Shown in pieces: positions 18,893 to 41,012 of a stretch of 64,000 nucleotides of DNA. Under the pieces are notes generated by a model, which worked only from the letters and a program-made list of their open reading frames with translations, ran no database searches and had not been told where the DNA came from. The position numbers were made by a program, and so were the translations under genes. The first letter of the stretch is position 1, and each line of letters opens with the position of its first letter. Source of the stretch: Cellulophaga sp. BC115SP (GTDB taxonomy: Bacteria; Bacteroidota; Bacteroidia; Cytophagales; Spirosomataceae). Where the stretch lies: positions 1 to 64,000 of the forward strand of contig NZ_JAAALB010000024.1 in NCBI RefSeq assembly GCF_009905545.1. The letters run 5' to 3'.

Positions 18893-20080
18893 CTACAAAT
18901 CCCCACTTGGACCAAAAAACTCATAATGTAATTGCCCCTCTGGAATTTCTAGCGCTAAAAGCATCTGTTTTACCTGTTTCATAAATGGTACTGGTCCGCA
19001 GAAATAATATTCTGCATCGAGCGATGAAATATTTGCTTTAAGCACTTCAGGCGTAAGTAATCCTTGATAATCTGGTTGGTCAGTCGCGAATGGCTCGTCA
19101 TAAATAGAAATCACCTTCAGAGTCTCCTTTTTATCTGCCAACTGACGACTTCTTTGGTCAAAAGCGTGAACAACTCCATTTTTGGCACATTGAATAAACA
19201 ATACTTCGTTTTCGGCGTGATGAAATAAGTGCATATACATACTCATCAAAGGTGTAATACCAACACCACCAGCAATCAAAACAATTGGTTTTTGCGTTGG
19301 TTCTAATACAAATTCACCTGCAGGAATTCCCAAATTGATGGTATCTCCTACTTGCGCTTTTTCATGTAAATAATTTGAAACAACACCAGCTAGATTACCC
19401 GTTTCCTTTTTAACCGAAATTCTTAACGTATTTTGAGTAGTACAACCAGACAAACTATAATTACGAGTATGCGTATGCTCAGCACCTTGAATACTGACAT
19501 TTACAGCCACATATTGCCCTGCTTTGAAGGTTGGAATAGCTGTATTATCAGAAGGCTTCAGATAAAAACTGGTAATGATACTCGATTCCTCCTCTTTTTT
19601 GACAATTGTATAACTTTTCTGTCCTCGATATCCACCCTCCGCTTTCTCAGCTTCTTGATAGATATTTTCTTCGATACCTATCAACAAATTGGCTAACTCT
19701 TGATAAGCCTCTGCCCAAGCATTAATAATATCATCCGTTGCTGCATCTCCTAAAACTATATTGATAGCTTCCAATAAGTTGGTTCCCACAATATCATACA
19801 TCTCAGGAGTAACTGATAAACTGGTATGTTTCTGTGAGATTTGTGTGATCGCTTTTGCCAAAACCGCAGGATTTTCAATATTGGCAGCATACGCGTAAAC
19901 CGCATTCGCCAAAGCACGTGGTTGTGTTCCATGCACTTGGTGTGTCATATTAAACACATTTTTGAGAGAAGGATTTCTTTCAAATAACAACTGGTAAAAA
20001 GTTTTCGTAATTGCCTCTCCATGAACAGCCAATACAGGCACAGTAGCCTTTACGATTTCTATAGTTTTTGCACTTGCCAT
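18893..20080 (-). CDS. hmp: Flavohemoglobin nitric oxide dioxygenase
   Basis: Converts NO plus O2 to nitrate with NAD(P)H, protecting against nitrosative stress. 395 aa. The globin domain (1-138) keeps distal Tyr29 and Gln53 and proximal His85 (QKHTSL), the same numbers as in E. coli Hmp. The FAD domain has RNYSLSG, and the NAD domain has GGVGITPLMSM and a C-terminal FFGPSG. The Rrf2-family regulator gene lies 187 bp upstream on the same strand; both promoter regions carry the same palindromic operator. Confidence 0.95.
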   Translation of the reverse strand: MASAKTIEIVKATVPVLAVHGEAITKTFYQLLFERNPSLKNVFNMTHQVHGTQPRALANAVYAYAANIENPAVLAKAITQISQKHTSLSVTPEMYDIVGTNLLEAINIVLGDAATDDIINAWAEAYQELANLLIGIEENIYQEAEKAEGGYRGQKSYTIVKKEEESSIITSFYLKPSDNTAIPTFKAGQYVAVNVSIQGAEHTHTRNYSLSGCTTQNTLRISVKKETGNLAGVVSNYLHEKAQVGDTINLGIPAGEFVLEPTQKPIVLIAGGVGITPLMSMYMHLFHHAENEVLFIQCAKNGVVHAFDQRSRQLADKKETLKVISIYDEPFATDQPDYQGLLTPEVLKANISSLDAEYYFCGPVPFMKQVKQMLLALEIPEGQLHYEFFGPSGDL

Positions 20081-20096
20081 AATTTTACAATAAAGA

Positions 20097-20120
20097 ATAA
20101 AAGACCTTTTAATCTTTTAT
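20097..20120. promoter_or_regulatory. Putative Rrf2 operator upstream of hmp
   Basis: Inverted repeat ATAAAAGA-N8-TCTTTTAT, 17 bp before the hmp start codon. Same half-sites and same spacing as at 20743-20766. Confidence 0.7.
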
Positions 20121-20267
20121 ATAATTAAAAAAATGTGTTTTAAAGAAAATGATTACGTGGTGATTTGCCAACGACATGAGGATTACTCGCAAACAGTTTC
20201 TCATCCAATCCGTAGGAATACCATTTACAAAAATTCCAATGATTTATAGACAACTCACCCCAAAAGT

Positions 20268-20702
20268 CTATCGCTTCAAAAAAGTTAAGCCATCAGCCAG
20301 ACCTGTTGCCACATCAAAGAGTGTGGTCGTTTCAAGAAGCTTGGTAATGTCTGCTCTAATTTTAGCAAATTGACGATGTAAAGGACAAGGATTTGCTCCG
20401 GAACACTCCTTTAGTCCTAATCCACAACTTTTGAAAATATCATCGCCATCCATTGCACGTACTACTTCAGCCAACTTTTTCTCCTTCATCGCCGATTCAG
20501 GAATTTCAAATCCGCCATGAGGTCCTTTTACCGAATCTACAATATGATTCTTGGATAAAACCTGCATGATTTTTCCAGTAAAAGCCTCAGGTGATTCGAT
20601 GGCTTGGGCAATATCTTTTATCCCCACCCTTTTTTGTACTAAAGACTGAGAAGCAATGTAAATACAGGCCTTGATAGCATATTCACAAGTTTTAGAAAAC
20701 AT
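20268..20702 (-). CDS. Rrf2 family regulator, NsrR-like
   Basis: 144-aa winged-helix repressor. The N-terminal MFSKTCEYAIKACIYIA and GPHGGFEIP wing match the Rrf2 family. Three cysteines in C-X6-C-X5-C (CGLGLKECSGANPC, about 93-106) are placed to bind an Fe-S cluster, as in NsrR and IscR. The neighbour is the NO-detoxifying flavohemoglobin, so an NO-sensing role as in NsrR is the best guess. A matching operator 41 bp upstream of its own start suggests autoregulation. The name nsrR is not assigned, since IscR/RsrR-like alternatives share these features. Confidence 0.88.
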   Translation of the reverse strand: MFSKTCEYAIKACIYIASQSLVQKRVGIKDIAQAIESPEAFTGKIMQVLSKNHIVDSVKGPHGGFEIPESAMKEKKLAEVVRAMDGDDIFKSCGLGLKECSGANPCPLHRQFAKIRADITKLLETTTLFDVATGLADGLTFLKR

Positions 20703-20821: not shown

Positions 20822-22192
20822 TTAGCCTTTACCTTCTTTCTTATTCCAGTAAAAATAAAATGGTATTCCTGAGGCAATTAGCGCCAAGCCAGAAAAAGCT
20901 TGTACGGGTTGAGTAAACAACGTGACTGTAACTAATACCAAACAAAACAAGATAAAAATCATGGGTATATAGGGATAGCCCACTACTTTGTAGACCCGTT
21001 CGAGCGTAGGTTCTTTCTGTCGAAGCAATATAACACCGTATGCTGTGGCGCCATAATAGATAAAAGAAGCAAAAACCAACATATCGGTCAGTTGGTCGAA
21101 ACTACCAGACCAAATCAATAGCACCGACCATAAAGCTTGAAATAACAAGGCATAAGAAGGGGTTTGATGTTGTGGGTGAATATGTGAAGTTTGCTTAAAA
21201 AACAGCTTATCTCTGCCCATGGCATAAAATAACCTTGCTGACATCAGAATAGTGCCATTGGTGGCGTTTAGAGTAGTAAGCAAAATTAAACACGCCAATA
21301 AGATCGTTCCGATGGGTCCTATCATCACCTTGGCAACTTCAATGGCTGCAATGGTGTTGGGATTTTCGTTCATTTGAATAAATGCCTCAATCGGTAGTAT
21401 CCGTAGATATACTAGATTGAGTGATACATAAATCAAGATAACCGATAGCGTACCAAAAGTCAGTGCTAAGGGTAAATTCTTTTGGGGAGATTTGACCTCC
21501 TCTCCAATAAATCCTATATGATTCCAACCTTCATATCCCCAAAATGCTCCAAGACAAGCTGCGAATAAGGCTTTTATCCAAGTGCCAGCAGTACGATTTT
21601 GATAAATTTCAAGAGATGATGAATGGCTTAAGTTTTCCCACGACCCCTGAGGGCTCCATAGTCCCCAAAAAACAAAAATTCCTACTGACAAAAACATCAA
21701 AAATGTCAAACTGTTACTTAATTTCTCTGCAATAGTTAATCCTTTGTAGTTGACATAGGTTAGCGAAGCAACCAAAAGCGTAGCTATAATTTTGATTAAT
21801 ATGGAAGCCTCGATGAAGTATAGCGGTAAATTTTTGGCAAAAATTGAATAAAAGGATTCTGCAAACACATAGGCTAAGGCGGCAATTGAGGCTGTTTTCA
21901 TTACCGTAAAATTGCCCCAACCGTACAAAAATGCAAAAAATGGATTGTAGACTTTTCGGTAATACTGATACTCCCCTCCTGAATCAGGAAAAAGACTTGC
22001 CATTTCAGCCGTCGTCAGTGCCCCAGCCAAGGTAATAAGCCCTGCAACTACCCAACACAATAACACCAACCAAGGCGAGCCTAATTCGGCTGACATTGGG
22101 GCTATTTTTTTAAAAACACCCGAACCAACAATCACGCTTACTACAAGCAAGCTTGCCGAACGAAGTCCTATTTTGGGTTGTAGAAGAGACAT
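20822..22192 (-). CDS. APC family amino acid permease
   Basis: 456-aa inner-membrane transporter with about twelve hydrophobic segments. The start MSLLQPKIGLRSASLLVVSVIVGSGVF contains the family's substrate-binding GSG motif in helix 1; a longer frame to 22279 is rejected because it precedes this. GAFWGYEGWNHIG is the helix-6 broken region typical of LAT/YfnA-type permeases. It lies 129 bp downstream of a DgcA-like racemase gene on the same strand, so it probably imports an amino acid, possibly a D-isomer or acyl derivative, for that pathway. Substrate not provable. Confidence 0.87.
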   Translation of the reverse strand: MSLLQPKIGLRSASLLVVSVIVGSGVFKKIAPMSAELGSPWLVLLCWVVAGLITLAGALTTAEMASLFPDSGGEYQYYRKVYNPFFAFLYGWGNFTVMKTASIAALAYVFAESFYSIFAKNLPLYFIEASILIKIIATLLVASLTYVNYKGLTIAEKLSNSLTFLMFLSVGIFVFWGLWSPQGSWENLSHSSSLEIYQNRTAGTWIKALFAACLGAFWGYEGWNHIGFIGEEVKSPQKNLPLALTFGTLSVILIYVSLNLVYLRILPIEAFIQMNENPNTIAAIEVAKVMIGPIGTILLACLILLTTLNATNGTILMSARLFYAMGRDKLFFKQTSHIHPQHQTPSYALLFQALWSVLLIWSGSFDQLTDMLVFASFIYYGATAYGVILLRQKEPTLERVYKVVGYPYIPMIFILFCLVLVTVTLFTQPVQAFSGLALIASGIPFYFYWNKKEGKG

Positions 22193-22232: not shown

Positions 22233-22321
22233 GTGGTATTCGCTTTAGAGTTCTGTAAATATTTCAGAAAACAAGCCAATTCATCGTATTTATGGTGCTT
22301 TTTAGAGATTCTTCCTCCTAT

Positions 22322-23392
22322 TTATAGCTTCAACAAAGAAAGACCAAATCCACTTTTCTCATTGAGATACATTAAACCTTTTTTGACTTCAAAACCTCCT
22401 GTTACCAAGTCCTCAGCCAAGTCAAAACTGCCATCTAGGTCAAGGTATTTTGTATTGGGACAAGCGTAGGCAAGATGTAAGGCTGCTGTGATACTGGCAA
22501 TGCTTTCGTCGTTACAACCCCAAAATAGGCTAATTCCCGCATTTTTGGCAATTTGAGCTATTTCTAAAGCAGGTAAAAGTCCTCCACATTTCATCAGTTT
22601 GATATTAAAAATACCAAACCTTTTGGGTTCAGCAGCAAACTTGATGGCATAGTTCGCATCCTTCAAGCTTTCATCTGCGGCAATTCCTGAGGCATAATCT
22701 AAGGTTTGATATAAGCTCTTTTCTTCTCCAACCGCTACGGGTTGCTCTACCAATTCAATAGCGAGACTTTGCGTATGTTCTAGCCATTTTAGAAGCGTAT
22801 CTATATCATATCCTTGGTTGGCATCTACTCGGATTGTTATAGCATTGCCAAACGATTTGCGAAGTGCCACAATTCTTTCTATATCTTCGTGCCAATCCAA
22901 TCCTGTTTTTACTTTTAGTGTTGTAAAACCTGCCTCCAAATACTCTTTTGCTTCTATTAAGGTATCTTCCACGCTCTTGATACCGATGGTAACAGAAGTT
23001 GGCAAAGCCTCTATCTTTCTCCCATAAAAATCAACTACTGGAATTGATAAATATTGGCAAAAAGCATCATGAAGTGCTAAATCAATCGCTGCCAGAGTGC
23101 CAGGCAAATACCCAAAATACTGTTGCGATTCAAAGATAATTTTCTGAAAATGTCGAATATCACGTCCTACTAATTTTTGAACAAAATCAGTTTGTAGGGA
23201 AACTAAAGTTTGAGCTGGATTTTCACCAACAACCTCTTCAGCAGGACTTGCCGAACCTACGCCGACAATTCCATTTGCTAATTCAATTTCTAAAAATACC
23301 AGTTGCACATCTGAAAATGTACTATAGGCAATTGTATAAGGTTTGGTAAGTTTCAAATACTTGATATAAGCACGAATAGCTACGATTTTCAT
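22322..23392 (-). CDS. Enolase-superfamily racemase: N-acetyl-D-Glu racemase DgcA or dipeptide epimerase
   Basis: 356 aa, muconate-lactonizing subgroup of the enolase superfamily. The catalytic lysine pair is K160/K162 (TLKVKTG), metal ligands D190, E216 and D240, and the opposite-face base K265 (NIKLMKCGG). This set fits L-Ala-D/L-Glu epimerase (YcjG) and the related DgcA, which racemizes N-acetyl-D-glutamate. The immediate neighbour, 9 bp upstream, is a DUF1611 gene of the DgcN type, which favours DgcA. The fused deacylase gene further upstream fits either use: trimming peptidoglycan-derived D-Glu compounds or removing the acetyl group. Confidence 0.85.
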   Translation of the reverse strand: MKIVAIRAYIKYLKLTKPYTIAYSTFSDVQLVFLEIELANGIVGVGSASPAEEVVGENPAQTLVSLQTDFVQKLVGRDIRHFQKIIFESQQYFGYLPGTLAAIDLALHDAFCQYLSIPVVDFYGRKIEALPTSVTIGIKSVEDTLIEAKEYLEAGFTTLKVKTGLDWHEDIERIVALRKSFGNAITIRVDANQGYDIDTLLKWLEHTQSLAIELVEQPVAVGEEKSLYQTLDYASGIAADESLKDANYAIKFAAEPKRFGIFNIKLMKCGGLLPALEIAQIAKNAGISLFWGCNDESIASITAALHLAYACPNTKYLDLDGSFDLAEDLVTGGFEVKKGLMYLNEKSGFGLSLLKL

Positions 23393-23401
23393 GGTGTATG
23401 G

Positions 23402-24442
23402 TTAGTTTAAAATTAGCTTTAAAACCTCCTCTACCCCATCTTGAAGGGGTAAAATGACAGGAATTTCTAATTCTTTTTGGTAGCTATCCCTAAATCCTAG
23501 ATATTCTTCTTCGGTACAATCTTCCGTATTCAGTGCCAAAGCTATCACTTCTGCTCCTAGTTTTTGTATTAATTCAATTTCTGAACTCACGCTAGGTATT
23601 TCGCCCCAATGGGGATCGTTATCGTAATATTTTCTCTTGGGTGCGTGTACTAATACAACCTTTTTGGCATTTCCTGAAATAATGAACTCAAATCCGCAAG
23701 GACCACTTGGGTTTCTTAAGGCAGATTGTCCTTCGAGCAAAATAAAGGCAGGTTTAGCTTCTTTCCAACAAGTAACAATGGCATGTTCTAATTCGCCCGA
23801 AACAAAATCATTGAGCGTAGAATCAAATACAAATCCGTATTTCCCGCCTTGTAACCAACCCGTTTGACCCGTATAAATCATTTCTGCGGAGATACCTTTT
23901 TGTTCGGCACATTGACGCAATAATCTCGCAGTAGTACGTTTTCCCAAAGCACAATCCATACCCATAACTGCCACAATTGGCACATCTACTTGATTAATTT
24001 CTCCTGTCCAAAAATGTAAATCCTGACGTTTCTTGGGCTTACGAATATCGATGAGTTCCAAGTTTTTTTCCTCCGCTAATTTGACAAAAACAGGATTGTC
24101 AGTCAAATACTCATGAAGTCCATTTACCACAGAAATACCTGCTCCCAAGGCCTTTTCTACAATTCCAACCATGGCTGGAGGCAATACTCCGCCTACAGTT
24201 GCCACACCGATGATTAAATAATTAATCTCTAACAATTGTTCAATAGCTTCTTCCAAAGAACCAAACACTGGTATATTTCGATGTTTTCCATCCAAAACTT
24301 CTCCAGCATCTTGGCCCGACAATTTAGGCGTATCGATTACACCAACGATTTCGAATCGCTCGGTACCTCTTATTAAGCCATGTGCCGTTTTGGCGTCGTT
24401 TGTTTCTAATAAACCGTTGGTTAATACTATCGCTTTGTTCAT
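23402..24442 (-). CDS. dgcN: DUF1611 family protein, DgcN-like N-acetyltransferase
   Basis: 346 aa with an N-terminal Rossmann-like region and a central P-loop-type motif GMDCALGKRTT (161-171), the DUF1611 hallmark. DUF1611 members paired with a DgcA racemase have been described as DgcN, acetylating D-glutamate in D-Glu catabolism. Here the pair is 9 bp apart, clearly one transcriptional unit. The product should be cytoplasmic. The symbol rests on this pairing as much as on sequence. A hairpin and 91 bp separate it from the upstream hydrolase fusion gene. Confidence 0.75.
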   Translation of the reverse strand: MNKAIVLTNGLLETNDAKTAHGLIRGTERFEIVGVIDTPKLSGQDAGEVLDGKHRNIPVFGSLEEAIEQLLEINYLIIGVATVGGVLPPAMVGIVEKALGAGISVVNGLHEYLTDNPVFVKLAEEKNLELIDIRKPKKRQDLHFWTGEINQVDVPIVAVMGMDCALGKRTTARLLRQCAEQKGISAEMIYTGQTGWLQGGKYGFVFDSTLNDFVSGELEHAIVTCWKEAKPAFILLEGQSALRNPSGPCGFEFIISGNAKKVVLVHAPKRKYYDNDPHWGEIPSVSSEIELIQKLGAEVIALALNTEDCTEEEYLGFRDSYQKELEIPVILPLQDGVEEVLKLILN

Positions 24443-24469
24443 GTTTGTGAGGTGATAGGGAGTTTAAAT

Positions 24470-24502
24470 AAGGGCAAAAGCAAATGAATGCGATTGCCCT
24501 TT
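24470..24502 (-). terminator. Intercistronic hairpin before dgcN
   Basis: AAGGGCAA / TTGCCCTT stem with a 16-nt interior. On the minus strand it is followed by ATTTAAA, so partial termination or mRNA processing between the fusion gene and dgcN is plausible. Confidence 0.5.
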
Positions 24503-24533
24503 TAGGATTAGATATTAAGGTGAAAAATGAATG

Positions 24534-27059
24534 TTATCGTTTGATCATTTGTCCAGACAATTTTCCTGTAGGCTTTTGGTCTTGCCAAACCAATTCACCA
24601 TTGACCCAAACCATTTTGATACCTGATGATATAGCTTTTGGGGTTTTCACATCGGCATGGTCTACGACCGTTTCTGGGTCAAATAGTACCATGTCGGCGA
24701 AATAATCTGGTTTGATAAGACCTCTAAGCTGGATACCAAGATTTTCGGCTGTGAGTCCTGTCATTTTATAGATGGCTGTTTCCAAAGTGAATAGCTTTTT
24801 CTCTCGCACATATTTACCTAACACTCTCGTAAAGGCCCCATGTCCTCTCGGATGTCCACTTCCTGCTCCATCTGAGCAGATATTCGTATGAGGCCAAGCC
24901 AATATGGCCTCCACATCTTCATCGTCCATAGATTTGCCCATGATGGCTTCTATTCCTTCGTCATAATCAGGGTTTTTCTTGTCAAACTCCTCAGCTTCGG
25001 CTACCAAATCCATCAGCGTTTGTGCTTCTGATTTTCCACGTAAACCAGCAATTTCTACAAGCGTTTTGCCAGCATAAGTCTTATTGGGAGCAAAACGAAC
25101 TATGATAGATTCTTTGGGGTCAAAAAGCTGTTCAGTTGCCATCTGGGCACTCTCAAGATTGGTATAATCTCTTTTAGGAAAAAGTACTCTTAAGGTCGAA
25201 TGCCAGAAAGTATATGGATAGCAGTCAGCCGTAATTTGAATACCTTCTGCTCTAGCCTCTTGAAGTTTCGCTAATATTTCGTGTGCAGATTTCCATTGAG
25301 AACGAAGGGCTATTTTTCCATGAGAAATTTGAACAGGAATTTTTGTTTCTCTGCCAATGTCAATAATTTCGTCGATTGCTTCGGTCAGATTTATATCCTC
25401 ACTTCTGATATGACTCATATATCGTCCACCGTTTTCAGCAGCTACTTTGGCTAGTGCAAGGACTTCATCACGATTCGAGAAAAAGGAAGATTCATATTCT
25501 AAACCAGTATTCAAGCCGATCGAACCCTTTTGAAGTTCACTTTCTAACAAGATTTTCATTTGGTTGACCTCTTCTGGCTTTGCAGTTCGGTACAAACCTC
25601 GTGGTCCCATCACCTTCTGTCGGAGCGTCGCATGACCTGTATAGGACGCAACATTAACCGCAACAGGTTTTTCTTTCATCCATTTGCTCAAACTATCCAT
25701 GGCATAACTACTACCATCCTGTCCTATAACAATCGTGGTAACTCCCTGACTAAGCATTGGGATGGCAGTTGGCGTTTTATCCAAACTTCCAAAATGGTGA
25801 CTATGCGAATCAATAAAGCCTGGAGCCAAGATTTGTCCATTTCCATCGGTGACAGTCTCGCCATCAAAAGGCTCTAATTTGCCAATTTCCCAAATCTTAT
25901 TATCTTTAATCCTAACCTGAACTTGTTGACTAGGTAAACCTGTACCATCTATCAATTTGATATTTTTGATTAAATGTGTTTTGGGTAAATGAAAAGGTTG
26001 ACCCGCAAGTATTTTTTTGAGAATATTTCTAAAAATTGGGTTTGTACCATTTGATAGCACAATGGCAGTTGTCTGGGTTTTGTTATTTCTGAAAATAGCA
26101 TTTTGAAAACCAACCCATGAGCCTGTGTGCTCAAATCCATTTTCCGTAATTCCCCAACCAAAGCCATACGGATAAGTTGTACCATCTTTGAGTTGAACAG
26201 GTTTGAAAGCCTCAGTCCAAGTGGCAGGTTTAAGCACCTTGTTCTCAGTCACCAATTGAATCCATTTATTCAAATCCTCTGCACTTGCATAGATATTGCC
26301 ATCGCCAACAACCCCATCCAAACGAATGAGATCATTGGAGATGGCTTTCCCATTTTTTCTTTCAAAACCTAAAACATGTTTTCTGTTTTGATTAGGACCA
26401 TTCAGAAAATAAACAAAAGTGTTTTTAAGTCCAAAAGGCTGGGATATTTGAGTGCTGAAGAAGTGTTCAAAAGAAGTTCCTGATGCTTTTTCAATAATAC
26501 TTGCCAAAAGCAAATAACCTGTATTACAATACTCCCATTTTGTTCCTGAAGCAAAATTGAGCGGAGGATGTTTTTCAACCAGTAATTGAATGAGCTTATC
26601 GTTGGTAAGGGTATCTAAGGTATTGAGATGACTCATGGCCAAATCAAAATATTCTGGCAAACCAGAAGTATGCGTCAGTAGGTGACGAATAGTAATCTCT
26701 TGATAAGGGAAATTTGGAATAAAATTGATAACCTGCTGGTCATATTCCAATTTCCCTTGCTCAAAGAGTTTCATAGTCATCGTGGCTACGAATTGTTTAG
26801 TAATTGAGGCAAGATTGAAGGGCTGAGCCGCATCTAGCGCATTGCGCTGTAAGTAATCAGTGTATCCGAGCGCCTTTTGAAACTTGATTTTTCCTTTTTC
26901 AGACAAAAGAACCACTCCACTAAATTGACCTTGAGCATGTAGTACACGCATAGCACTATCCACTTGGACAATTTTCTGAGGAGTCAGCTGGGCAGTCGTC
27001 CTGTAAAAAGGATAAAGCACTGCCATAAGCAGCCATAACAAGTTTCTTTTTAGAGGCAT
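24534..27059 (-). CDS. Exported fusion: serine beta-lactamase-like hydrolase plus N-acyl-D-amino-acid deacylase
   Basis: 841 aa with a signal peptide (cleavage near TTAQ, 24). Residues about 27-350 form a class C beta-lactamase / D-Ala-D-Ala peptidase-like domain with S85-x-x-K88, Y177-C-N179 and HTG (311-313). Residues about 360-841 form an amidohydrolase of the D-aminoacylase family: DSHSHH metal motif (417-422), H550 (YMSHIRSE), H580 (QISHG), D730 (CSDG) and HPRGHGAFTRVLGKY. The usual metal-site Cys of GNCG is replaced by Asp in GQDG (448). It is first of a minus-strand run into dgcN and dgcA, and divergent from lrp. Both activities act on D-residues, so it may release and deacylate D-amino acids in the periplasm. 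Confidence 0.85.
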   Translation of the reverse strand: MPLKRNLLWLLMAVLYPFYRTTAQLTPQKIVQVDSAMRVLHAQGQFSGVVLLSEKGKIKFQKALGYTDYLQRNALDAAQPFNLASITKQFVATMTMKLFEQGKLEYDQQVINFIPNFPYQEITIRHLLTHTSGLPEYFDLAMSHLNTLDTLTNDKLIQLLVEKHPPLNFASGTKWEYCNTGYLLLASIIEKASGTSFEHFFSTQISQPFGLKNTFVYFLNGPNQNRKHVLGFERKNGKAISNDLIRLDGVVGDGNIYASAEDLNKWIQLVTENKVLKPATWTEAFKPVQLKDGTTYPYGFGWGITENGFEHTGSWVGFQNAIFRNNKTQTTAIVLSNGTNPIFRNILKKILAGQPFHLPKTHLIKNIKLIDGTGLPSQQVQVRIKDNKIWEIGKLEPFDGETVTDGNGQILAPGFIDSHSHHFGSLDKTPTAIPMLSQGVTTIVIGQDGSSYAMDSLSKWMKEKPVAVNVASYTGHATLRQKVMGPRGLYRTAKPEEVNQMKILLESELQKGSIGLNTGLEYESSFFSNRDEVLALAKVAAENGGRYMSHIRSEDINLTEAIDEIIDIGRETKIPVQISHGKIALRSQWKSAHEILAKLQEARAEGIQITADCYPYTFWHSTLRVLFPKRDYTNLESAQMATEQLFDPKESIIVRFAPNKTYAGKTLVEIAGLRGKSEAQTLMDLVAEAEEFDKKNPDYDEGIEAIMGKSMDDEDVEAILAWPHTNICSDGAGSGHPRGHGAFTRVLGKYVREKKLFTLETAIYKMTGLTAENLGIQLRGLIKPDYFADMVLFDPETVVDHADVKTPKAISSGIKMVWVNGELVWQDQKPTGKLSGQMIKR

Positions 27060-27158
27060 TTTATCAGATGTTTATGCTGATTACTTATTCGAAATTTATA
27101 TTTTATTCTTTAATTTAATAAAAATCACGCTACTAATTTTTGTCATTTTCAAAAAAAT

Positions 27159-27173
27159 AAGCATATTTTGCTT
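27159..27173. promoter_or_regulatory. Lrp-like operator in the divergent promoter
   Basis: AAGCATATTTTGCTT: 5-bp inverted arms around TATTT, matching 13 of 15 positions of the Lrp consensus YAGHAWATTWTDCTR. It lies 35 bp before the Lrp/AsnC gene and about 100 bp before the fusion gene. Confidence 0.6.
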
Positions 27174-27208
27174 TATTAACATACAATTAAATTATTAAAC
27201 AGAATATT

Positions 27209-27664
27209 ATGCTGGACTCGACCGACCAACAAATTCTTCAGTTATTACAGCAAAATGCCAAACTCACCATTAAAGAATTAGCCGAAATGTTGAATCTGAC
27301 CACCTCGCCTGTTTTTGAGCGAATCAAAAGGTTGGAAAAAGAGGGTGTTATTTCAGGGTACGTTGCCTTAGTCAACCCCGAAAAAACTGGTCGTGGGCAG
27401 GTGGTTTTCTGCAATATATCCATGCCCATTTATACCCATGAGAACATCGATACTTTTGAACAAATCGTACAAAATATGCCAGAAGTAATAGAGTGCTATC
27501 ACTTGGCAGGCACGGTTGATTATCAGCTCAAAGTATATGTCAAAGACATCAAAGAGTATGATGGTTTTTTACGCAGAATGGCCGAAATTCCTTCCATAAA
27601 GGTGCATAGTAGTACGGTGGTGCTTCATCATGTTAAGTACACAACGGCGGTACCCGTGGATTAA
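27209..27664 (+). CDS. Lrp/AsnC family regulator
   Basis: 151-aa feast/famine regulator. N-terminal HTH: LTIKELAEMLNLTTSPVFERIKRLEKEGVI (about 18-47). C-terminal RAM ligand domain from about 65, with the AGTVDYQLKVYV effector-pocket strand. It is divergent from the D-amino-acid locus (149 bp between starts) and an Lrp-like operator lies in that gap. It is therefore likely to control the locus, possibly in response to glutamate, D-Glu or another amino acid. Ordinary length and start. Confidence 0.93.
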   Translation: MLDSTDQQILQLLQQNAKLTIKELAEMLNLTTSPVFERIKRLEKEGVISGYVALVNPEKTGRGQVVFCNISMPIYTHENIDTFEQIVQNMPEVIECYHLAGTVDYQLKVYVKDIKEYDGFLRRMAEIPSIKVHSSTVVLHHVKYTTAVPVD

Positions 27665-27723: not shown

Positions 27724-29355
27724 ATGAAATTATCTTTTCTTTCGGCAAGCGCCATGGCTTGTCTTTTGGGTTTTTCAGCTATTGGACAAAAAGGTGGTCC
27801 AGAAGTGAAAAACCTAAAAAATATCAATCCTAATGCTATCAAAGCGACCATGACCTTTTTGGCAGATGATTTGGTCGAAGGTCGTCAACCCGGTACTAGA
27901 GGTTTTTCGGTTGCATCAAAATTTGTAGAAACTCAAATGATGCGCATCGGCTTGAAACCAGCTATGCCAGACGGAGGTTATTTACAGCCTGTGCCTTTGA
28001 AAAAAGGAATCGTGAGTGAAAAACTTACGACCATGAAGCTGGGAGAAGAAACTTTGACTTATGGTCAAGAGTTTATCGCTAGTCCGTATATGCCCCAATC
28101 TGAATCGTCTGTATCCGCACCACTGGTTTTTGTAGGTTATGGTATTTCAGCGCCAGAAATGCAGTATGACGACTATAAAGGAATTGATGTAAAAGGCAAA
28201 ATTGTCGTATTTTTCAATGCAGCCCCAGAAAGTTTCCCTTCCAATCAAAGAGCCTATTTTACAACAAACCCTGTAAAATATAACGAAGCTATCAAACGTG
28301 GCGCGGTGGGCGTAATCGCTGTAAACTTCCCTAACGATAAGCGTTCTACTTGGGAAGCTACTGTTCGCAGAACCAAACAAGGGACTTTCAAATGGTTAAA
28401 CAAAGAAGGACAGCCGAATGATGCCTTCCCTGCCTTGAAAGCTGTAGCTACTTTTAATCCTGACAAAGCTGAGAAACTATTTGCCAAATCAGGAAAAACA
28501 TTTGCTTCGGCAGTAGAAAGTACCAAAGCTGGCAAAGCCGAATCTTTTGATCTAAATATTCAGGCAAATATTAAAGTTAATACACAGTTTACTTCTGTGG
28601 CAGGTTCAAATTTGGTAGGAATCATCGAAGGTTCTGATCCAAAGCTAAAAGACGAATATATCGTTTACACTGCACACCTTGACCACTTTGGTATTGGAGC
28701 TCCAGTGAAAGGTGATTCTATTTACAATGGTGCGCATGACAATGCGTCGGGTGTGGCGATTTTGTTGGAAATTGCTCAAACGTTTAAAAATTTACCAGAA
28801 GCACCAAAACGTTCCATTGTTTTCACCATCGTTACGGGTGAAGAATTCGGCTTGCTTGGTTCTGATTATTTTGCTAGTAATAGTCCACTCAATGGAAAAA
28901 TCGTAGCCGATTTGGCGATTGATATGCCGTTCTTCTTCCACCCTGTTTTGGATATTGTGCCTTATGGTGCACAGCATTCAAGTTTGAATCAGCAAGTAGA
29001 AAAAACGGCAAAAATTTTAGGATTGGGTATTAGTCCTGATCCATTTCCAGAGCAAGTGGTATTTATTCGTAGCGACCATTTTAGTTTTATCAAAAAAGGT
29101 ATTCCAGCCTTATTTATAAAAAGTGGTTTTAAAACTGTCCCAAGTGACACGATTGATAGAAGCAAATCTGACGTTGGTTGGAGAAGCACCATCTATCACA
29201 CGCCCCAAGACGATATGTCTCAACCCTTTGACTTTGATGCAGCAGCCACTCATGTAAAAGTAAATTATTTGATTGGCTACTATGTAGCACAAGACTCCAA
29301 GTCACCAGATTGGAATGTTGGAGATTTCTTCGGAGGAAAATTTGGAAAGAAATAA
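27724..29355 (+). CDS. M28 family metallopeptidase
   Basis: 543-aa secreted aminopeptidase-like enzyme. Signal peptide (MKLSFLSASAMACLLGFSAIGQ); the Cys has no lipobox context, so cleavage near residue 22 is likelier than a lipoprotein. A PA-type insert occupies about 120-260. The di-zinc ligands are visible in TAHLDHFG, HDNASG, TGEEFG and RSDHFSF. It probably trims peptides in the periplasm or outside the cell. Own promoter, own terminator; a neighbour of the Lrp gene but not obviously part of its regulon. Confidence 0.9.
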   Translation: MKLSFLSASAMACLLGFSAIGQKGGPEVKNLKNINPNAIKATMTFLADDLVEGRQPGTRGFSVASKFVETQMMRIGLKPAMPDGGYLQPVPLKKGIVSEKLTTMKLGEETLTYGQEFIASPYMPQSESSVSAPLVFVGYGISAPEMQYDDYKGIDVKGKIVVFFNAAPESFPSNQRAYFTTNPVKYNEAIKRGAVGVIAVNFPNDKRSTWEATVRRTKQGTFKWLNKEGQPNDAFPALKAVATFNPDKAEKLFAKSGKTFASAVESTKAGKAESFDLNIQANIKVNTQFTSVAGSNLVGIIEGSDPKLKDEYIVYTAHLDHFGIGAPVKGDSIYNGAHDNASGVAILLEIAQTFKNLPEAPKRSIVFTIVTGEEFGLLGSDYFASNSPLNGKIVADLAIDMPFFFHPVLDIVPYGAQHSSLNQQVEKTAKILGLGISPDPFPEQVVFIRSDHFSFIKKGIPALFIKSGFKTVPSDTIDRSKSDVGWRSTIYHTPQDDMSQPFDFDAAATHVKVNYLIGYYVAQDSKSPDWNVGDFFGGKFGKK

Positions 29356-29569: not shown

Positions 29570-30946
29570 ATGCCGTTTAACTCGATTAATTTTATTTATT
29601 TCTTTGGCGTAATATGTCCTATTTATTGGCTTTTTAAGGCTAACTTCAAAATCCAAAATATCATTCTCCTTGTCGGAAGTCTATATTTCTATGCACAGGT
29701 CGACCTTAAACTTTGTGCTTTGTGGGCTGTAATATCGCTGATAACATGGTCGCTTGGTAATGCTTTAGAGAAGTTTCAGCAAAGAAAAACCATCCTATGG
29801 CTTGGTCTTTTTCTCATATTCTCACAACTATTTATTGCCAAGTATTACAACTGGATGTTGGGTGATTTTTCAGGTACAACGTCAATCTATAAGTTTGCCT
29901 CCACCATTGGGCTTTCTTATTACACTTTGGCTGCCTCCAGTTATCTGGTAGATATTTACCGAAAAAAATTATCGCCTGTAACTAACCCCGTTACCCTAGG
30001 AGCTTATTTGTCTTTCTTTCCGCAACTTCTGTCTGGTCCGATTCCTATTGCTTACAAAGATCTTCCACAATATAGCCAATCGAGAAGTATTTCAATCAGT
30101 TCTGTTGAGGAGGCTACTCAGCGCATTTTATTTGGAATATTTAAAAAAGTAATCGTGGCTGGGTTATTAGCTAAGCCAGTCGACTATATCTTTTATAACC
30201 ATAGCGAACTAGGATTTATTTACCTCTGGCTTGCCATTGTCCTCTATAGCTTTCAGGTTTATATGGATTTTTCTGGATACTCAGATATGGCTTGGGGAAT
30301 TGCCAAACTCTTTGGTATTAAAATCAATGCGAATTTCAACTCCCCATTTATTTCAAGAACCATAGACGAATTTTGGCGTAGATGGCATTTATCACTCAGT
30401 GCTTGGCTCAAGGAGTATATCTACCTTCCGTTAGGCGGTAGAGGTAGCAGCAAGTGGCAATATATGGTCAATATCTTTATCGTGTTTTTTATGAGTGGTG
30501 TTTGGCATGGTGCCAACGCCAACTTTATTCTGTGGGGAAGTTTCAACGGACTTTTATTCATATTGGCAATTTTGACAGGTTGGACGAGAGAGAAAAATGA
30601 TACCCAATATGGCATGAAAGGCTTTTTCTCGATGCTTTTAGTTTTTTTATCTATCGCTTTTACGAGAGTGTTTTTCAGGTCTCCCGACTTTGCTACTGCC
30701 ATTACCTACTATCAAGACATGTTTAAACTCAATGACTTTTCTATCCCAGATATCGGAATCATGGGACTTGGTTTATCAGCAATGATAGTGTTTGTTGAAT
30801 GGTTGCAGAGAAATAAGAAGCATCCTGCTGATATTTTTGGATGGTCGCTGTCAATTAGATTGGTCATTTACGCCAGTGTTATCAGTGTTATTTACTGGAT
30901 GTGGCCAACTCAAAATCCCATCGAGTATATATACTTTAAATTTTAA
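29570..30946 (+). CDS. MBOAT family O-acyltransferase (AlgI/DltB-like)
   Basis: 458-aa membrane protein with ten or more hydrophobic segments. MBOAT hallmarks are DFSGYSDMAWGIAKLFGI, the amphipathic RRWHLSLSAWLKEYIYLPLGG, and FMSGVWHGANANFILWG with the catalytic His. Members move acyl (usually acetyl) groups across the membrane onto polysaccharides or teichoic acids. The next gene on the strand codes for an SGNH lipoprotein, the usual partner that completes transfer to the glycan, so the pair probably O-acetylates an exopolysaccharide. No alginate or glycosyltransferase gene is adjacent. Confidence 0.9.
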   Translation: MPFNSINFIYFFGVICPIYWLFKANFKIQNIILLVGSLYFYAQVDLKLCALWAVISLITWSLGNALEKFQQRKTILWLGLFLIFSQLFIAKYYNWMLGDFSGTTSIYKFASTIGLSYYTLAASSYLVDIYRKKLSPVTNPVTLGAYLSFFPQLLSGPIPIAYKDLPQYSQSRSISISSVEEATQRILFGIFKKVIVAGLLAKPVDYIFYNHSELGFIYLWLAIVLYSFQVYMDFSGYSDMAWGIAKLFGIKINANFNSPFISRTIDEFWRRWHLSLSAWLKEYIYLPLGGRGSSKWQYMVNIFIVFFMSGVWHGANANFILWGSFNGLLFILAILTGWTREKNDTQYGMKGFFSMLLVFLSIAFTRVFFRSPDFATAITYYQDMFKLNDFSIPDIGIMGLGLSAMIVFVEWLQRNKKHPADIFGWSLSIRLVIYASVISVIYWMWPTQNPIEYIYFKF

Positions 30947-31039
30947 TATTACAGACTATAATAGATTAATCAATTTAGTAATTGTGTAGAATAAGAGCCG
31001 ATGAATTTTAAATGTAAAAAACTGATAATCACAAAATTA

Positions 31040-31075
31040 CATTCACAATTCATTGCTCACAATTCGGCACTAATA
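31040..31075. repeat. Heptad-phased tract between MBOAT and SGNH genes
   Basis: Steps ATTCACA, ATTCATT, GCTCACA, ATTCGGC. The 21 bases 31033-31053 are identical to 63095-63115, over 32 kb away. Confidence 0.7.
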
Positions 31076-31103
31076 CTTACCAACCCGTTAAAACAGTTTT
31101 GAC

Positions 31104-32087
31104 ATGATGAAAAAAACAAATTTGGCTTTTGCTTTTGCAACAGGAGTTATGATAATGGCTTGTAGCGACAAAAAACAAACGACTGAAACGCAATCGACCA
31201 ATTTAAAAGAAACCGTACAAGCTGAATATCCTGAAATTCCAAGAGAAGAAATTCTTGAGGATGACACACTTTCCACAAAAGTGTACAATGAACTTAAGAC
31301 ACGCTATAAAAACCAGTTAGTAGAACTTCAAAAAGCTGTTAGCTCAAACGGTGCACAGCTAGTAATTACCTTTTTAAGTCCAGAAGTGGGCGAAAGTTTG
31401 ACCAAAAGTAATCGTCTTGGCAAAGAACTGGTAGAAGGATATGCCAAAGAATTACAGGTCCCTTTTTATGATTTAACACAAAAACTAGCCAATCAAGACC
31501 CAAAAGTAGTTACGCAACTACCCAAGGACGGTCACTGGTCAAAAGAAGGCGCTAAAATTATTGCTGAAGAATTAACACCCATCATAAAACAATTCAGTAC
31601 TGTAAAATCAACGAAGACGTTTGCAGAAAAGCCTGAAACTTTTGGGGATTTATTTCCCTCAAATGATGAAATTTTGGATGGTGGAAAAGGCCTTCCTTAC
31701 CGTGTAAAAACCAATGCCCAAGGTTTGAGAATGGATACGGATGTATCAAGCACTAAAACCAAACAACGTATCTTGTTTTTGGGAGATTCGGAAATGTATT
31801 TTCCTTTTTTGGATAATAAAAATATTGGTACCAACCTCCTGCAAACTGCTTTTCCTGACAAAGAAATGTTGAATGCCGCCAACTGGGGGTATTCAATTGA
31901 CGATTATGTGAGCTTGTATAAAGAAAAAGCTCAATTTGCTGAGCCAGATGTGGTCATTCTAACGGTCAATGGAAATGATTTTTTAGACATGTATTTTTCA
32001 CATAGAAATCGTTTTTCAAGAAATAAACAACCACAAAATCCATCGGAAGTAGAAAAGAGTTTTTATCAAAAGCATTTTTCTAAGTAA
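31104..32087 (+). CDS. SGNH/GDSL-like lipoprotein, acyl-transfer partner
   Basis: 327-aa lipoprotein (lipobox MIMAC). Two SGNH portions are visible in unusual order. A block-V-like DGHWSKEGAKII (about 144-155) comes first, after a typical mid-domain segment (LVITFLSPEVG). The block-I GDSE (about 230) and block-III NGND then follow, and the protein ends soon after. A standard SGNH hydrolase has GDS first and DxxH last, so this looks circularly permuted, or is two partial domains. It follows an MBOAT gene and probably works with it in O-acylation of a surface glycan. The exact role is inferred from the pair. Confidence 0.75.
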   Translation: MMKKTNLAFAFATGVMIMACSDKKQTTETQSTNLKETVQAEYPEIPREEILEDDTLSTKVYNELKTRYKNQLVELQKAVSSNGAQLVITFLSPEVGESLTKSNRLGKELVEGYAKELQVPFYDLTQKLANQDPKVVTQLPKDGHWSKEGAKIIAEELTPIIKQFSTVKSTKTFAEKPETFGDLFPSNDEILDGGKGLPYRVKTNAQGLRMDTDVSSTKTKQRILFLGDSEMYFPFLDNKNIGTNLLQTAFPDKEMLNAANWGYSIDDYVSLYKEKAQFAEPDVVILTVNGNDFLDMYFSHRNRFSRNKQPQNPSEVEKSFYQKHFSK

Positions 32088-38232: not shown

Positions 38233-39813
38233 CTAAGAAAAGTATTTATTTTTCAGCAAATTAAAGGAAAAACGGAGGTGCTTGTTAAAAGCAATATACA
38301 ACGCTACCAAGAATAAGCCGTAGCCCCATACGGTAAAAAGCTCCATATTTCCCAATAAAAAAGACTGGGTCTGCACTCCTGCATTGACTTTCTTCATGGC
38401 CAAAGTGGCGGCTGGCGCAAGGTCATATCCTTTTTGAACAAATGATTCTTGGATGGTACTCACGATTCCTGTTGTGGTTGGATTTTCGGGTAACAGTTTT
38501 TCCAGAAAAATATATCGATGTTTATTGATAAAATACACTTGAAAATTTTGAACTAAACAAAAACCAATATTCGTGCCCCAAAACCTTCCTGCCACACCAA
38601 TTGCACCTGCAAACGGAGCTAAATAAGCTGGAACAGCCGAAACGGTATTGAGCACCAAAGGCACAAACAATACCCCTACTCCAACACCCTGCAACATATA
38701 AGGAATCCACATTTGCGAAAGTGCCACATCAGGTAAAAATAAAAAAGTAAACCACCAATGGTAAATAGCCATCGTCAAAAAGCCTAGAATCAAAATCAGT
38801 TTGGTAGGCAACTTTTTTACCATCATCGTTCCAGCAATGGTCATTCCGAAAAAGACACCTAACAGGTTTAAATACTGTACATGTGCTACTCTGAGCGGTT
38901 CCCATTGCCAGACTTTACTCATGGTGGTGTGACATATCGTCAGTGTAGCTCTGGAGATATAAAAAACAATGAAAAGTAACAAACTCAATCGTAAGTTTCG
39001 ATAAGAAAACACTCGCATATCAAAACAACTACGTCGGTAAGTCATTTGTCGTATAATAAACAAAGCGCTCAATACCAAGCTAGTAATGGCACAAATAACA
39101 ATATTCTCAGACTGAAACCAATACAATTTTTCGCCATAATTGAGCACATATACACCTGTCAAGATTGCAATGGTCAACAAAACAAAACTGGTCCAGTCAA
39201 CTTTATAAAGCGGTATTTTTCGATGAAAACGATTAGCTGTAAATGTTAGCCATATCAGGCTTGCCACCATAATTTGGAAAATAGCAGATCCAAAAGTCAT
39301 GTATTTCCAATCGTGTACATCGAGCAACCAAACTGCAATATTGACTATGAAGGGACTTGCAGCCAACAAAGCACCATAGGTAATCGAAAAAACGATAATC
39401 GTTGCGTTAGGACTTTTAGTTCTAGACAACATCAAAATACGCAATGGTATCCAAGGCAATGCCATTAATATTCCTTCGAGTATTCGCAGAAAGGCAAAAA
39501 CAACAAAATCGTTGGTATAGGCAGAAGTCACAAATAATACTGCCGAAAGCAGATAAATCGAAATAAGATAGTTGCGCGGAGGAAAATATTTGAATAGTCG
39601 ACTTTCTATTAATATCGTCGCCAGAAAAGTGCCATAGGTTAGACTCATACTAAATTGTAAGTCTTCAGGCTCAATGTCGAAATAACTGGCAGCATAAGAA
39701 ATATTGGAAGTGTATAATCCAAGCAAAGCCATGGTATGCAACATACAAATCACCAGCACCACCTGAATAGCCCAATTAGGCACCCAAGGTTTGAAAATGG
39801 ATGTTTTCTTCAT
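38233..39813 (-). CDS. MFS efflux transporter (EmrB-like position in a tripartite pump)
   Basis: 526 aa with about fourteen membrane segments, matching drug:H+ antiporter-2 (DHA2) length. The loop after helix 2 and RILEGILMALPWIPLRILMLSR resemble DHA2 motifs A/C, though weakly. The frame extends 18 bp to a TTG; the ATG at 39813 is chosen. It is last of a TolC - HlyD - MFS run on the minus strand (84-bp and 65-bp gaps), so it should be the inner-membrane motor of an EmrAB-TolC-type exporter of drugs or a metabolite. Substrate unknown. Confidence 0.85.
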   Translation of the reverse strand: MKKTSIFKPWVPNWAIQVVLVICMLHTMALLGLYTSNISYAASYFDIEPEDLQFSMSLTYGTFLATILIESRLFKYFPPRNYLISIYLLSAVLFVTSAYTNDFVVFAFLRILEGILMALPWIPLRILMLSRTKSPNATIIVFSITYGALLAASPFIVNIAVWLLDVHDWKYMTFGSAIFQIMVASLIWLTFTANRFHRKIPLYKVDWTSFVLLTIAILTGVYVLNYGEKLYWFQSENIVICAITSLVLSALFIIRQMTYRRSCFDMRVFSYRNLRLSLLLFIVFYISRATLTICHTTMSKVWQWEPLRVAHVQYLNLLGVFFGMTIAGTMMVKKLPTKLILILGFLTMAIYHWWFTFLFLPDVALSQMWIPYMLQGVGVGVLFVPLVLNTVSAVPAYLAPFAGAIGVAGRFWGTNIGFCLVQNFQVYFINKHRYIFLEKLLPENPTTTGIVSTIQESFVQKGYDLAPAATLAMKKVNAGVQTQSFLLGNMELFTVWGYGLFLVALYIAFNKHLRFSFNLLKNKYFS

Positions 39814-39878
39814 CTTTAAATATATGTTCAAAGCAAAATACCTCTAAAACCAGCGTTCATAATAAGGTACTTTCACCG

Positions 39879-40928: not shown

Positions 40929-41012
40929 TGTAAAAAACAGCCTAAGGGACAGTTATTAGAAAAAAGAGAATTATTTCCTTCAATTACCTAATAACTAACC
41001 CCTTATGCCCAT

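What the first reader, a model, noticed from the sequence alone, without database searches (positions are those of the whole stretch)
22322..27664. A D-glutamate / peptidoglycan scavenging locus with a permease, DgcA and DgcN-like enzymes and a divergent Lrp regulator
Seen: an enolase-superfamily racemase with the epimerase lysines, a DUF1611 gene 9 bp away, an exported hydrolase fusion just upstream, an APC permease downstream, all minus strand, and a divergent Lrp/AsnC gene. Known: DUF1611/DgcA pairs act in D-Glu catabolism by acetylation and racemization; related epimerases act on wall dipeptides. Inference: the permease imports, and the enzymes convert D-Glu or acyl-D-Glu to L-Glu. The permease and exported deacylase make this a more complete set than the bare pair.
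Basis: partly seen in the sequence, partly recalled or inferred. Interest (0 to 1): 0.7.

Follow-up and report, generated by a model that had tools for sequence, protein, structure and literature searches.

The report
Probable conserved D-amino-acid salvage operon
A bacterium related to Flectobacillus carries a gene set, shared by many of its relatives, that probably collects mirror-image (D) amino acids and flips them to the usable form; it resembles a known D-glutamate pathway but looks like a separate version whose substrate is unknown.

Summary
The genes are as described: exported two-domain hydrolase, DUF1611 protein, enolase-superfamily epimerase and APC permease in one minus-strand run, divergent Lrp. 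Among 80 named loci the epimerase follows DUF1611 in 75 of 75 with room to see it, the hydrolase precedes it in 65 of 76, the permease follows in 44 of 73. Of 194 order genomes, 39 have this epimerase type and all 39 have this DUF1611 type; 2 of 41 have DUF1611 alone. The pair is the core; only 10 of the 39 have a close hydrolase. The D-glutamate reading is weakly supported: the proteins fall far below the DgcA and DgcN cut-offs (137 of 400; 123 of 480 bits), while a DgcN/DgcA-type pair exists in the phylum. The epimerase's nearest solved relative, sister to its clade, was crystallised with L-Arg-D-Lys. The genome has another candidate for L-Ala-D-Glu beside an NlpC/P60 gene. The amidohydrolase lacks the metal cysteine of D-aminoacylases. 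Best reading: a further branch of the "acylate, then racemise" route; substrate and acyl donor unknown.

The parts
24534..27059 (-). Exported fusion protein, 841 aa: S12 serine hydrolase + D-aminoacylase-like amidohydrolase
   Evidence: Pfam; S12 motifs SxxK, YxN, HTG each intact in 30 of 31 distinct sequences; N-terminal hydrophobic stretch by eye and by a crude script (31 of 33 fusion rows)
26025..26960 (-). S12 (beta-lactamase/DD-peptidase-like) domain, residues 34-345
   Evidence: PF00144 E 1.2e-54; PDB relatives D-Ala-D-Ala carboxypeptidase, alkaline D-peptidase, D-aminopeptidase
24537..25973 (-). Amidohydrolase domain, residues 363-841; HxH, two His and catalytic Asp kept, but D-aminoacylase metal Cys replaced by Asp448 (GQDG), and Glu521 (GLEY)
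   Evidence: metal Cys of D-aminoacylases from PMC12017989 (passages)
23402..24442 (-). DUF1611 protein, 346 aa, distant relative of DgcN; P-loop-like GMDCALGKRTT
   Evidence: PF17396/PF07755; DgcN model 123 of 480 bits; model pLDDT 93, Foldseek hits 2obn, 2g0t, 7xrj DgcN
22322..23392 (-). Enolase-superfamily epimerase, 356 aa; K160/K162 and K265/K268, metal D190 E216 D240, WGCNDES, DLDGS
   Evidence: model pLDDT 95; nearest structure 3rit
20822..22192 (-). APC-superfamily amino acid permease; likely ATG start at 22192 (listed ORF runs to a TTG at 22279)
   Evidence: PF13520 E 3.2e-49; start; within two genes of the epimerase in 44 of 73 named loci
27209..27664 (+). Divergent Lrp/AsnC regulator, candidate regulator of the operon
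   Evidence: PF13412 + PF01037; divergent neighbour of the fusion gene in 6 of 60 named loci with room to see it
27060..27208 (.). AT-rich intergenic region between the divergent genes; presumed promoters of both
   Evidence: sequence; no promoter was tested

Best explanation
The locus is a D-amino-acid salvage operon, a further branch of the 'mask, then racemise' strategy of DgcN/DgcA. Outside the inner membrane the S12 + amidohydrolase fusion trims D-amino-acid-containing peptides or N-acyl-D-amino acids (inferred). The permease imports the product (inferred). Inside, the DUF1611 protein attaches an acyl or aminoacyl group to the amino group of the D-amino acid (inferred from DgcN; ours is 27% identical to a DgcN-type protein). 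The Mg-dependent epimerase then inverts the alpha carbon by two-lysine proton transfer (inferred from intact catalytic residues and solved relatives). A general deacylase or peptidase elsewhere frees the L-amino acid (assumed, not sought). Shown: the genes, their intact motifs, conserved order, and near-perfect co-occurrence of DUF1611 and epimerase. Not shown: any substrate. D-Glu is disfavoured; a neutral or basic D-amino acid, or a dipeptide with a basic first residue, is favoured.
For: Conserved order. Co-occurrence: 39 of 39 epimerase genomes and 39 of 41 DUF1611 genomes among 194 order genomes; 25 of 25 and 25 of 28 in a 395-genome phylum sample that overlaps the first. In 13 of the 39 the genes are not seen side by side; in two of these they lie on one contig, about 310 kb (G024) and 261 kb (G069) apart. 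Pair followed by an S12 hydrolase in 5 loci from 1.2-1.6 Mb, partly incomplete, genomes. Catalytic lysines and metal ligands in at least 94 of 95 window-type epimerases; Asp295 in 94 of 95 (1 gap) and 13 of 13 sister-clade members, 0 of 9 in the DgcA/other group. 3rit is sister to the window-type clade, joint node 0.98, 46.7% identity, and was solved with L-Arg-D-Lys. Separate L-Ala-D-Glu candidate in the genome.
Against: No activity is known to me for these exact subfamilies except the Methylococcus epimerase, whose specificity I know only from a PDB title and recall. If DUF1611 acetylates, the product has no free amino group, yet the Asp-Leu-Asp motif thought (recalled) to hold the dipeptide amino group is kept; DgcA-type proteins keep it too, so it does not decide. 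3rit Glu51 and Arg24 are Ala51 and Ser24 here. In L097/L103 a gene scoring 248 of 600 bits as tryptophan dehydrogenase sits in the run, pointing to a hydrophobic amino acid. Only 10 of 39 order genomes with the pair have a close hydrolase homologue (which scored at most 5 candidates a genome), so the exported step may not be general. DUF1611 of the window type pairs with a 33% epimerase in G324, and no epimerase was found at the threshold in G370 and G537. Counts are not corrected for shared ancestry; thresholds were set after seeing the scores.
Confidence: 0.48

Rival explanations
1. One reading: a DgcN/DgcA D-glutamate pathway or wall-peptide L-Ala-D-Glu recycling locus.
For: Same two protein families side by side; dgcN reported in Bacteroidetes (passage in PMC12363236); D-Glu is common in peptidoglycan. 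The genome's other epimerase, which I put forward for L-Ala-D-Glu, itself misses the L-Ala-D/L-Glu cut-offs, so that role is not proven to be taken.
Against: DgcA 137 of 400 bits, DgcN 123 of 480, L-Ala-D/L-Glu epimerase 198 of 500 and 102 of 343. The DgcA-type protein in L186 (509 bits; it also just reaches one L-Ala-D/L-Glu cut-off, 343.7 of 343) is 26% identical to ours. Other epimerase beside NlpC/P60. Loop Arg absent.
Confidence: 0.14
2. Dipeptide route without acylation: imported L-Xaa-D-Yaa dipeptides are epimerised to L,L-dipeptides and hydrolysed; DUF1611 does something else, such as binding a nucleotide or editing.
For: Many of the closest solved relatives are dipeptide epimerases. 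Conserved Asp295 could hold a basic N-terminal residue. In G072, where no DUF1611 of this kind was found, a GQDG/GLEY amidohydrolase lies about 1.6 kb from another epimerase type.
Against: Co-occurrence with DUF1611 in 39 of 39 genomes suggests that DUF1611 is needed; the permease is an amino acid type, not an oligopeptide type. G072 is one case of 8 such loci read.
Confidence: 0.22
3. The pair makes a D-amino acid or D-dipeptide for the cell (biosynthesis) rather than salvaging one.
For: Epimerases are reversible; the pair is kept in small genomes.
Against: Linked permease, exported hydrolase and Lrp fit uptake and catabolism; patchy within one genus (G029 and G059 have both, G151 lacks both), unlike an essential wall precursor.
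Confidence: 0.1

Closest known systems
DgcN/DgcA D-glutamate pathway (EC 2.3.1.312 and 5.1.1.25)
   Same: Same two protein families, adjacent; DUF1611 fold shared with DgcN 7xrj
   Different: 27% and 26% identity to a DgcN/DgcA-type pair from the same phylum; far below both NCBIfam cut-offs; different loop residues; extra hydrolase and permease
Dipeptide epimerase of Methylococcus capsulatus, PDB 3rit/3ro6 (3rit: complex with L-Arg-D-Lys)
   Same: 46.7% identity, TM 0.96, rmsd 1.2 A, WGC(M/N)DES and YLDLDGSF signatures, sister to the window-type clade
   Different: Glu51 to Ala51, Arg24 to Ser24; its gene neighbours could not be reached
L-Ala-D/L-Glu epimerases (YcjG, YkfB) and the Bacteroides enzyme 3iji
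   Same: Same superfamily subgroup and catalytic residues
   Different: 30.9% identity to YkfB; below both family cut-offs; the genome has a separate gene nearer to 3iji
D-aminoacylase / N-acyl-D-Glu deacylase / OngB (subtype V amidohydrolases)
   Same: Fold family, HxH, two His, Lys, DCYPY, catalytic Asp, HPR
   Different: Metal Cys is Asp; Glu beside the conserved Tyr; here fused to an S12 domain and exported
N-succinylamino acid racemase routes (2p88, N-succinyl Arg/Lys racemase)
   Same: Similar logic and same superfamily
   Different: 30.9% identity; the acylating partner there is a GNAT enzyme (recalled), not DUF1611

Membership tests
DgcN (NCBIfam NF041892) | Score at or above 480 bits | tested here: not met
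   123.1 bits
DgcA (NF042940) | Score at or above 400 bits | tested here: not met
   137.4 bits
L-Ala-D/L-Glu epimerase (NF041118, NF011708) | Scores at or above 500 and 343 bits | tested here: not met
   197.6 and 102 bits; the genome's other epimerase L004 does not meet them either, 136.1 and 133.4
Dipeptide epimerase subgroup of the enolase superfamily | Two catalytic Lys sites, three carboxylate metal ligands, DxD on the eighth strand | tested here: met
   K160/K162, K265/K268, D190, E216, D240, D318/D320
Cationic dipeptide epimerase (3rit type) | Groups with 3rit in a tree | tested here: met
   3rit is sister to 103 window-type terminals, joint node 0.98, one FastTree tree
Cationic dipeptide epimerase (3rit type) | Acidic residues at 3rit Glu51 and Asp296 (roles recalled) | tested here: inconclusive
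   Asp295 kept; position 51 is Ala, Glu at 52
Cationic dipeptide epimerase (3rit type) | Activity on cationic dipeptides | not testable with these tools
   needs enzyme assays
DUF1611 (Pfam) | PF17396 + PF07755 above gathering score | tested here: met
   93.3 and 181.6 bits against 22.6 and 25
D-aminoacylase (subtype V amidohydrolase) | Cys/His/His metal site with catalytic Asp | tested here: not met
   Asp448 in 31 of 31 distinct fusions; GQDG in 75 of 80 distinct homologues at 50% identity or more (74 of 74 of at least 450 aa), GNCG in 0; GNCG in 6 of 8 more distant homologues
S12 serine hydrolase | SxxK, YxN, HTG | tested here: met
   S85-K88, Y177-N179, H311-G313

The most novel reading that the evidence does not exclude
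The DUF1611 protein of this clade is not an acetyltransferase but an ATP-using ligase (its P-loop domain has a weak structural resemblance to dethiobiotin synthetase) that joins the D-amino acid to an L-amino acid; the dipeptide epimerase inverts it inside the dipeptide and a peptidase releases it. The cell would thus flip D-amino acids by 'ligate, epimerise, hydrolyse', which would also give many orphan dipeptide epimerases a reason to exist.
Probability: 0.12. Interest if true: 0.78.

Novelty: new variant of a known kind. Interest (0 to 1): 0.42.

Why it matters
So this is a common but unassigned gene pair of Bacteroidota, and the first-stage reading shows how easily it is taken for a D-glutamate or cell-wall pathway. 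The tight pairing of DUF1611 with one clade of dipeptide-epimerase-like enzymes gives an orphan enzyme class a partner and makes its real substrate testable.

Tried and rejected
Rejected: DgcN/DgcA orthology; L-Ala-D-Glu recycling as the likely role, with the reservation that the rival gene L004 itself misses the L-Ala-D/L-Glu cut-offs; use of the DxD motif to tell dipeptide from N-acyl substrates, because DgcA-type proteins also have it; the Cytophaga hutchinsonii D-Ala-L-Val enzyme 3q45 as nearest relative (113 bits against 307 for 3rit).

Led nowhere: neighbours of the epimerase genes that are apart from DUF1611 showed no recurring catabolic gene that names the substrate. The Methylococcus gene neighbourhood could not be reached. 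Lukk 2012, Yu 2023 (ISME J) and Kalyanaraman 2008 are not held and are cited from recall or through other papers. One search was swamped by unrelated uses of 'DGCN' (575 papers, 20 listed). The M28 peptidase at 27724-29355 lies beyond Lrp in one (L068) of the 6 loci with a divergent Lrp, so I left it out of the operon.

Limits: the 80 named loci are the best 80 of 579 by similarity to DUF1611, many of them metagenome bins of the same groups; ORFs were called mechanically by script. Epimerase residue counts use 95 + 13 + 9 distinct sequences split by identity to the window protein; L002 and L005 were left out as non-epimerases. Only one protein of the group of 9 was scored above the DgcA cut-off (L186, the same gene as in L037); L172 and L004 scored 186 and 208 of 400. 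Genome co-occurrence sets were read off the tables with thresholds chosen afterwards. After that check I moved the best explanation from 0.50 to 0.48 (close hydrolase in 10 of 39 genomes) and the first rival from 0.12 to 0.14 (L004 misses the cut-offs).
Full report
What is there. The window holds a minus-strand run from 27059 to 20822: an 841-aa exported fusion (S12 serine hydrolase + amidohydrolase), a DUF1611 protein, an enolase-superfamily epimerase and an APC permease, with a divergent Lrp/AsnC gene at 27209-27664. Gaps are 91, 9 and 129 bp, the last one if the permease starts at the ATG at 22192. The source looks like a Flectobacillus-type Cytophagales genome: the closest named DUF1611 genes are 93% and 92% identical and come from Flectobacillus.

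Is the set real? Of these 80, 76 had at least 1.5 kb upstream and 65 of 76 had the amidohydrolase homologue within two genes on the same strand; 75 had room downstream and 75 of 75 had the epimerase within two genes; 73 had room beyond and 44 of 73 had the permease within two genes. The S12 fusion is over 700 aa in 25 of 65; 37 of the other 40 are amidohydrolases alone (503-533 aa) and 3 are intermediate pieces. In 15 loci a sodium/solute-symporter-like gene is in the same run (one member scanned). The Lrp gene is divergent beside the fusion gene in 6 of 60 loci and divergent beside DUF1611 in L158 and L161.

Coupling without linkage. PF07755 as a whole is in 46 of 194 order genomes and 76 of 395 phylum genomes. 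In the 194 order genomes the window-type DUF1611 occurs in 41 and the window-type epimerase in 39; all 39 have both; G098 (79% complete, gene cut by a contig end) and G116 have DUF1611 alone. In 13 of the 39 the genes are not seen side by side; 11 of these have them on different contigs of draft assemblies, and in G024 and G069 they lie some 310 and 261 kb apart on one contig. In a 395-genome phylum sample, overlapping the first, the numbers are 25 epimerase, 28 DUF1611, 25 both; G324 pairs its DUF1611 with a 33% epimerase, G370 and G537 had none at the threshold; with the sister clade included, 47 of 50 and 47 of 50. These counts are not corrected for ancestry, but within genus g3 two genomes have both and one has neither. 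The hydrolase is looser: of the 39 order genomes with the pair, 10 have a homologue at 48% identity or more, all other scored hits being 42% or less; that search scored at most 5 candidates a genome. In small genomes of one family (1.2-1.6 Mb held, 61-93% complete) the pair is followed by a separate S12 hydrolase in 5 loci; the one scanned is PBP4B-like but below that family's cut-off.

The epimerase. Catalytic lysines and metal ligands are intact in at least 94 of 95 window-type sequences. The predicted model (pLDDT 94.8) matches 3rit best: dipeptide epimerase of Methylococcus capsulatus with Mg and L-Arg-D-Lys, TM 0.96, 46% identity. In a FastTree tree of 137 sequences 3rit is sister to 103 window-type terminals (joint node 0.98), apart from YkfB, the DgcA-type proteins and the other references. 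Trp291 is in 94 of 95 window-type and 0 of 13 sister-clade and 0 of 9 other proteins; Asp295 is in 94 of 95, 13 of 13 and 0 of 9. Arg at loop position 23 or 24 is in 8 of 9 of the DgcA/other group, 4 of 95 window-type and 0 of 13 sister-clade proteins. From recall, the cationic dipeptide group of Lukk 2012 includes this Methylococcus enzyme and uses Glu51 and Asp296; here the Asp is kept and Glu51 is not. So the side-chain preference is open; acidic substrates look least likely.

Why D-glutamate is not favoured. NCBIfam scores are 137.4 of 400 for DgcA, 123.1 of 480 for DgcN, 197.6 of 500 and 102 of 343 for L-Ala-D/L-Glu epimerases. The phylum has a DgcN/DgcA-type pair: the L186 epimerase scores 509 of 400 as DgcA (and 343.7 of 343 as an L-Ala-D/L-Glu epimerase), and its DUF1611 neighbour, taken from L037 without its start, 472.9 of 480; they are 26% and 27% identical to ours. 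The window genome has another epimerase at G000:C139 (L004), 38.9% identical over 329 positions to the Bacteroides enzyme solved with L-Ala-D-Glu, in a minus-strand cluster with an NlpC/P60 gene; two genes between them look by eye like an aminotransferase and a serine hydrolase. That resembles a wall-dipeptide recycling set, but L004 too misses the L-Ala-D/L-Glu cut-offs (136 of 500, 133 of 343), so this is a candidate and no proof.

The DUF1611 protein. It is the only PF07755 match in the genome. Its model (pLDDT 93.4) matches 2obn and 2g0t (TM 0.82-0.86) and, less closely, 7xrj (TM 0.74), titled N-acetyltransferase DgcN; far weaker matches are dethiobiotin synthetase (TM about 0.4) and Mur ligases (TM 0.2-0.3, of little weight). 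The P-loop-like stretch reads GMDCALGKRTT, with Arg where a Walker A motif has Ser or Thr (motif recalled). An acyl-CoA transferase is the simplest reading by analogy with DgcN; an ATP-using ligase is the bolder one.

The exported fusion. The S12 motifs are intact in 30 of 31 distinct fusion sequences. In the amidohydrolase domain HxH, His550, His580, Lys582, Tyr614, Asp730, His736 and Arg738 are invariant in 31 of 31, but the D-aminoacylase metal Cys (Cys97 in OngB; passages of PMC12017989) is Asp448 in 31 of 31, with Glu521 in GLEY. Of 84 homologue rows in the fetched loci, all at 50% identity or more, 80 are distinct; 75 have GQDG, none GNCG, and all 74 of at least 450 aa have GQDG. Of 8 more distant homologues 6 have GNCG, one PDGG, one GQDG. 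So it is a distinct subgroup, and 'deacylase' is unproven.

What is known. [quoted passage not shown] PMC10845958 (passage) mentions the DgcN-DgcA route. In the held library DUF1611 appears by name in two papers, both on Dickeya by their titles (listing). No paper on this operon showed in the listings; several listings were capped and the library lacks most subscription papers.

Verdict. A real, conserved and, as far as I could search, unassigned gene set of a known kind of pathway, with the DUF1611-epimerase pair as its core, a hydrolase and transporter that vary, and an unknown substrate.

Noticed in passing
L151, L153, L170, L171, L173, L174, L175, L176, L178: Sister clade: in 8 of these loci a threonine-synthase-like PLP gene (one member scanned) is in the run with DUF1611; in 6 a ~507-aa region without Pfam match is fused to or followed by a creatininase-type hydrolase; the epimerases have Glu24 (12 of 13), Asp51 (11 of 13) and Asp295 (13 of 13). 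The acidic loop suggests basic substrates.
   Followed up: partly
L169:6037-7155: A DUF1611 gene beside an ornithine-racemase-like gene (404.6 bits against a cut-off of 480).
   Followed up: no
L138, L160, L161: A gene of one cluster, in L160 a haem-dependent N-demethylase alpha-subunit-like protein (PF11927), lies between epimerase and permease.
   Followed up: no
L207:3377-8429: The window genome's other epimerase, nearest to the Bacteroides 3iji enzyme, in a cluster with an NlpC/P60 gene: possible wall-dipeptide recycling set.
   Followed up: partly
window 18893-20702: NO-inducible flavohemoprotein (over its cut-off) next to an Rrf2-type regulator, probably a nitric oxide defence pair.
   Followed up: no
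window 29570-32087: MBOAT acyltransferase followed by a weakly SGNH/AlgX-like protein, as in exopolysaccharide O-acetylation.
   Followed up: no
window 55021-56229: NamZ exo-beta-N-acetylmuramidase, a peptidoglycan sugar enzyme, 28 kb from the operon.
   Followed up: no
window 38233-42368: MFS-like transporter, HlyD-type adaptor and outer-membrane efflux protein in a row: a tripartite efflux set.
   Followed up: no
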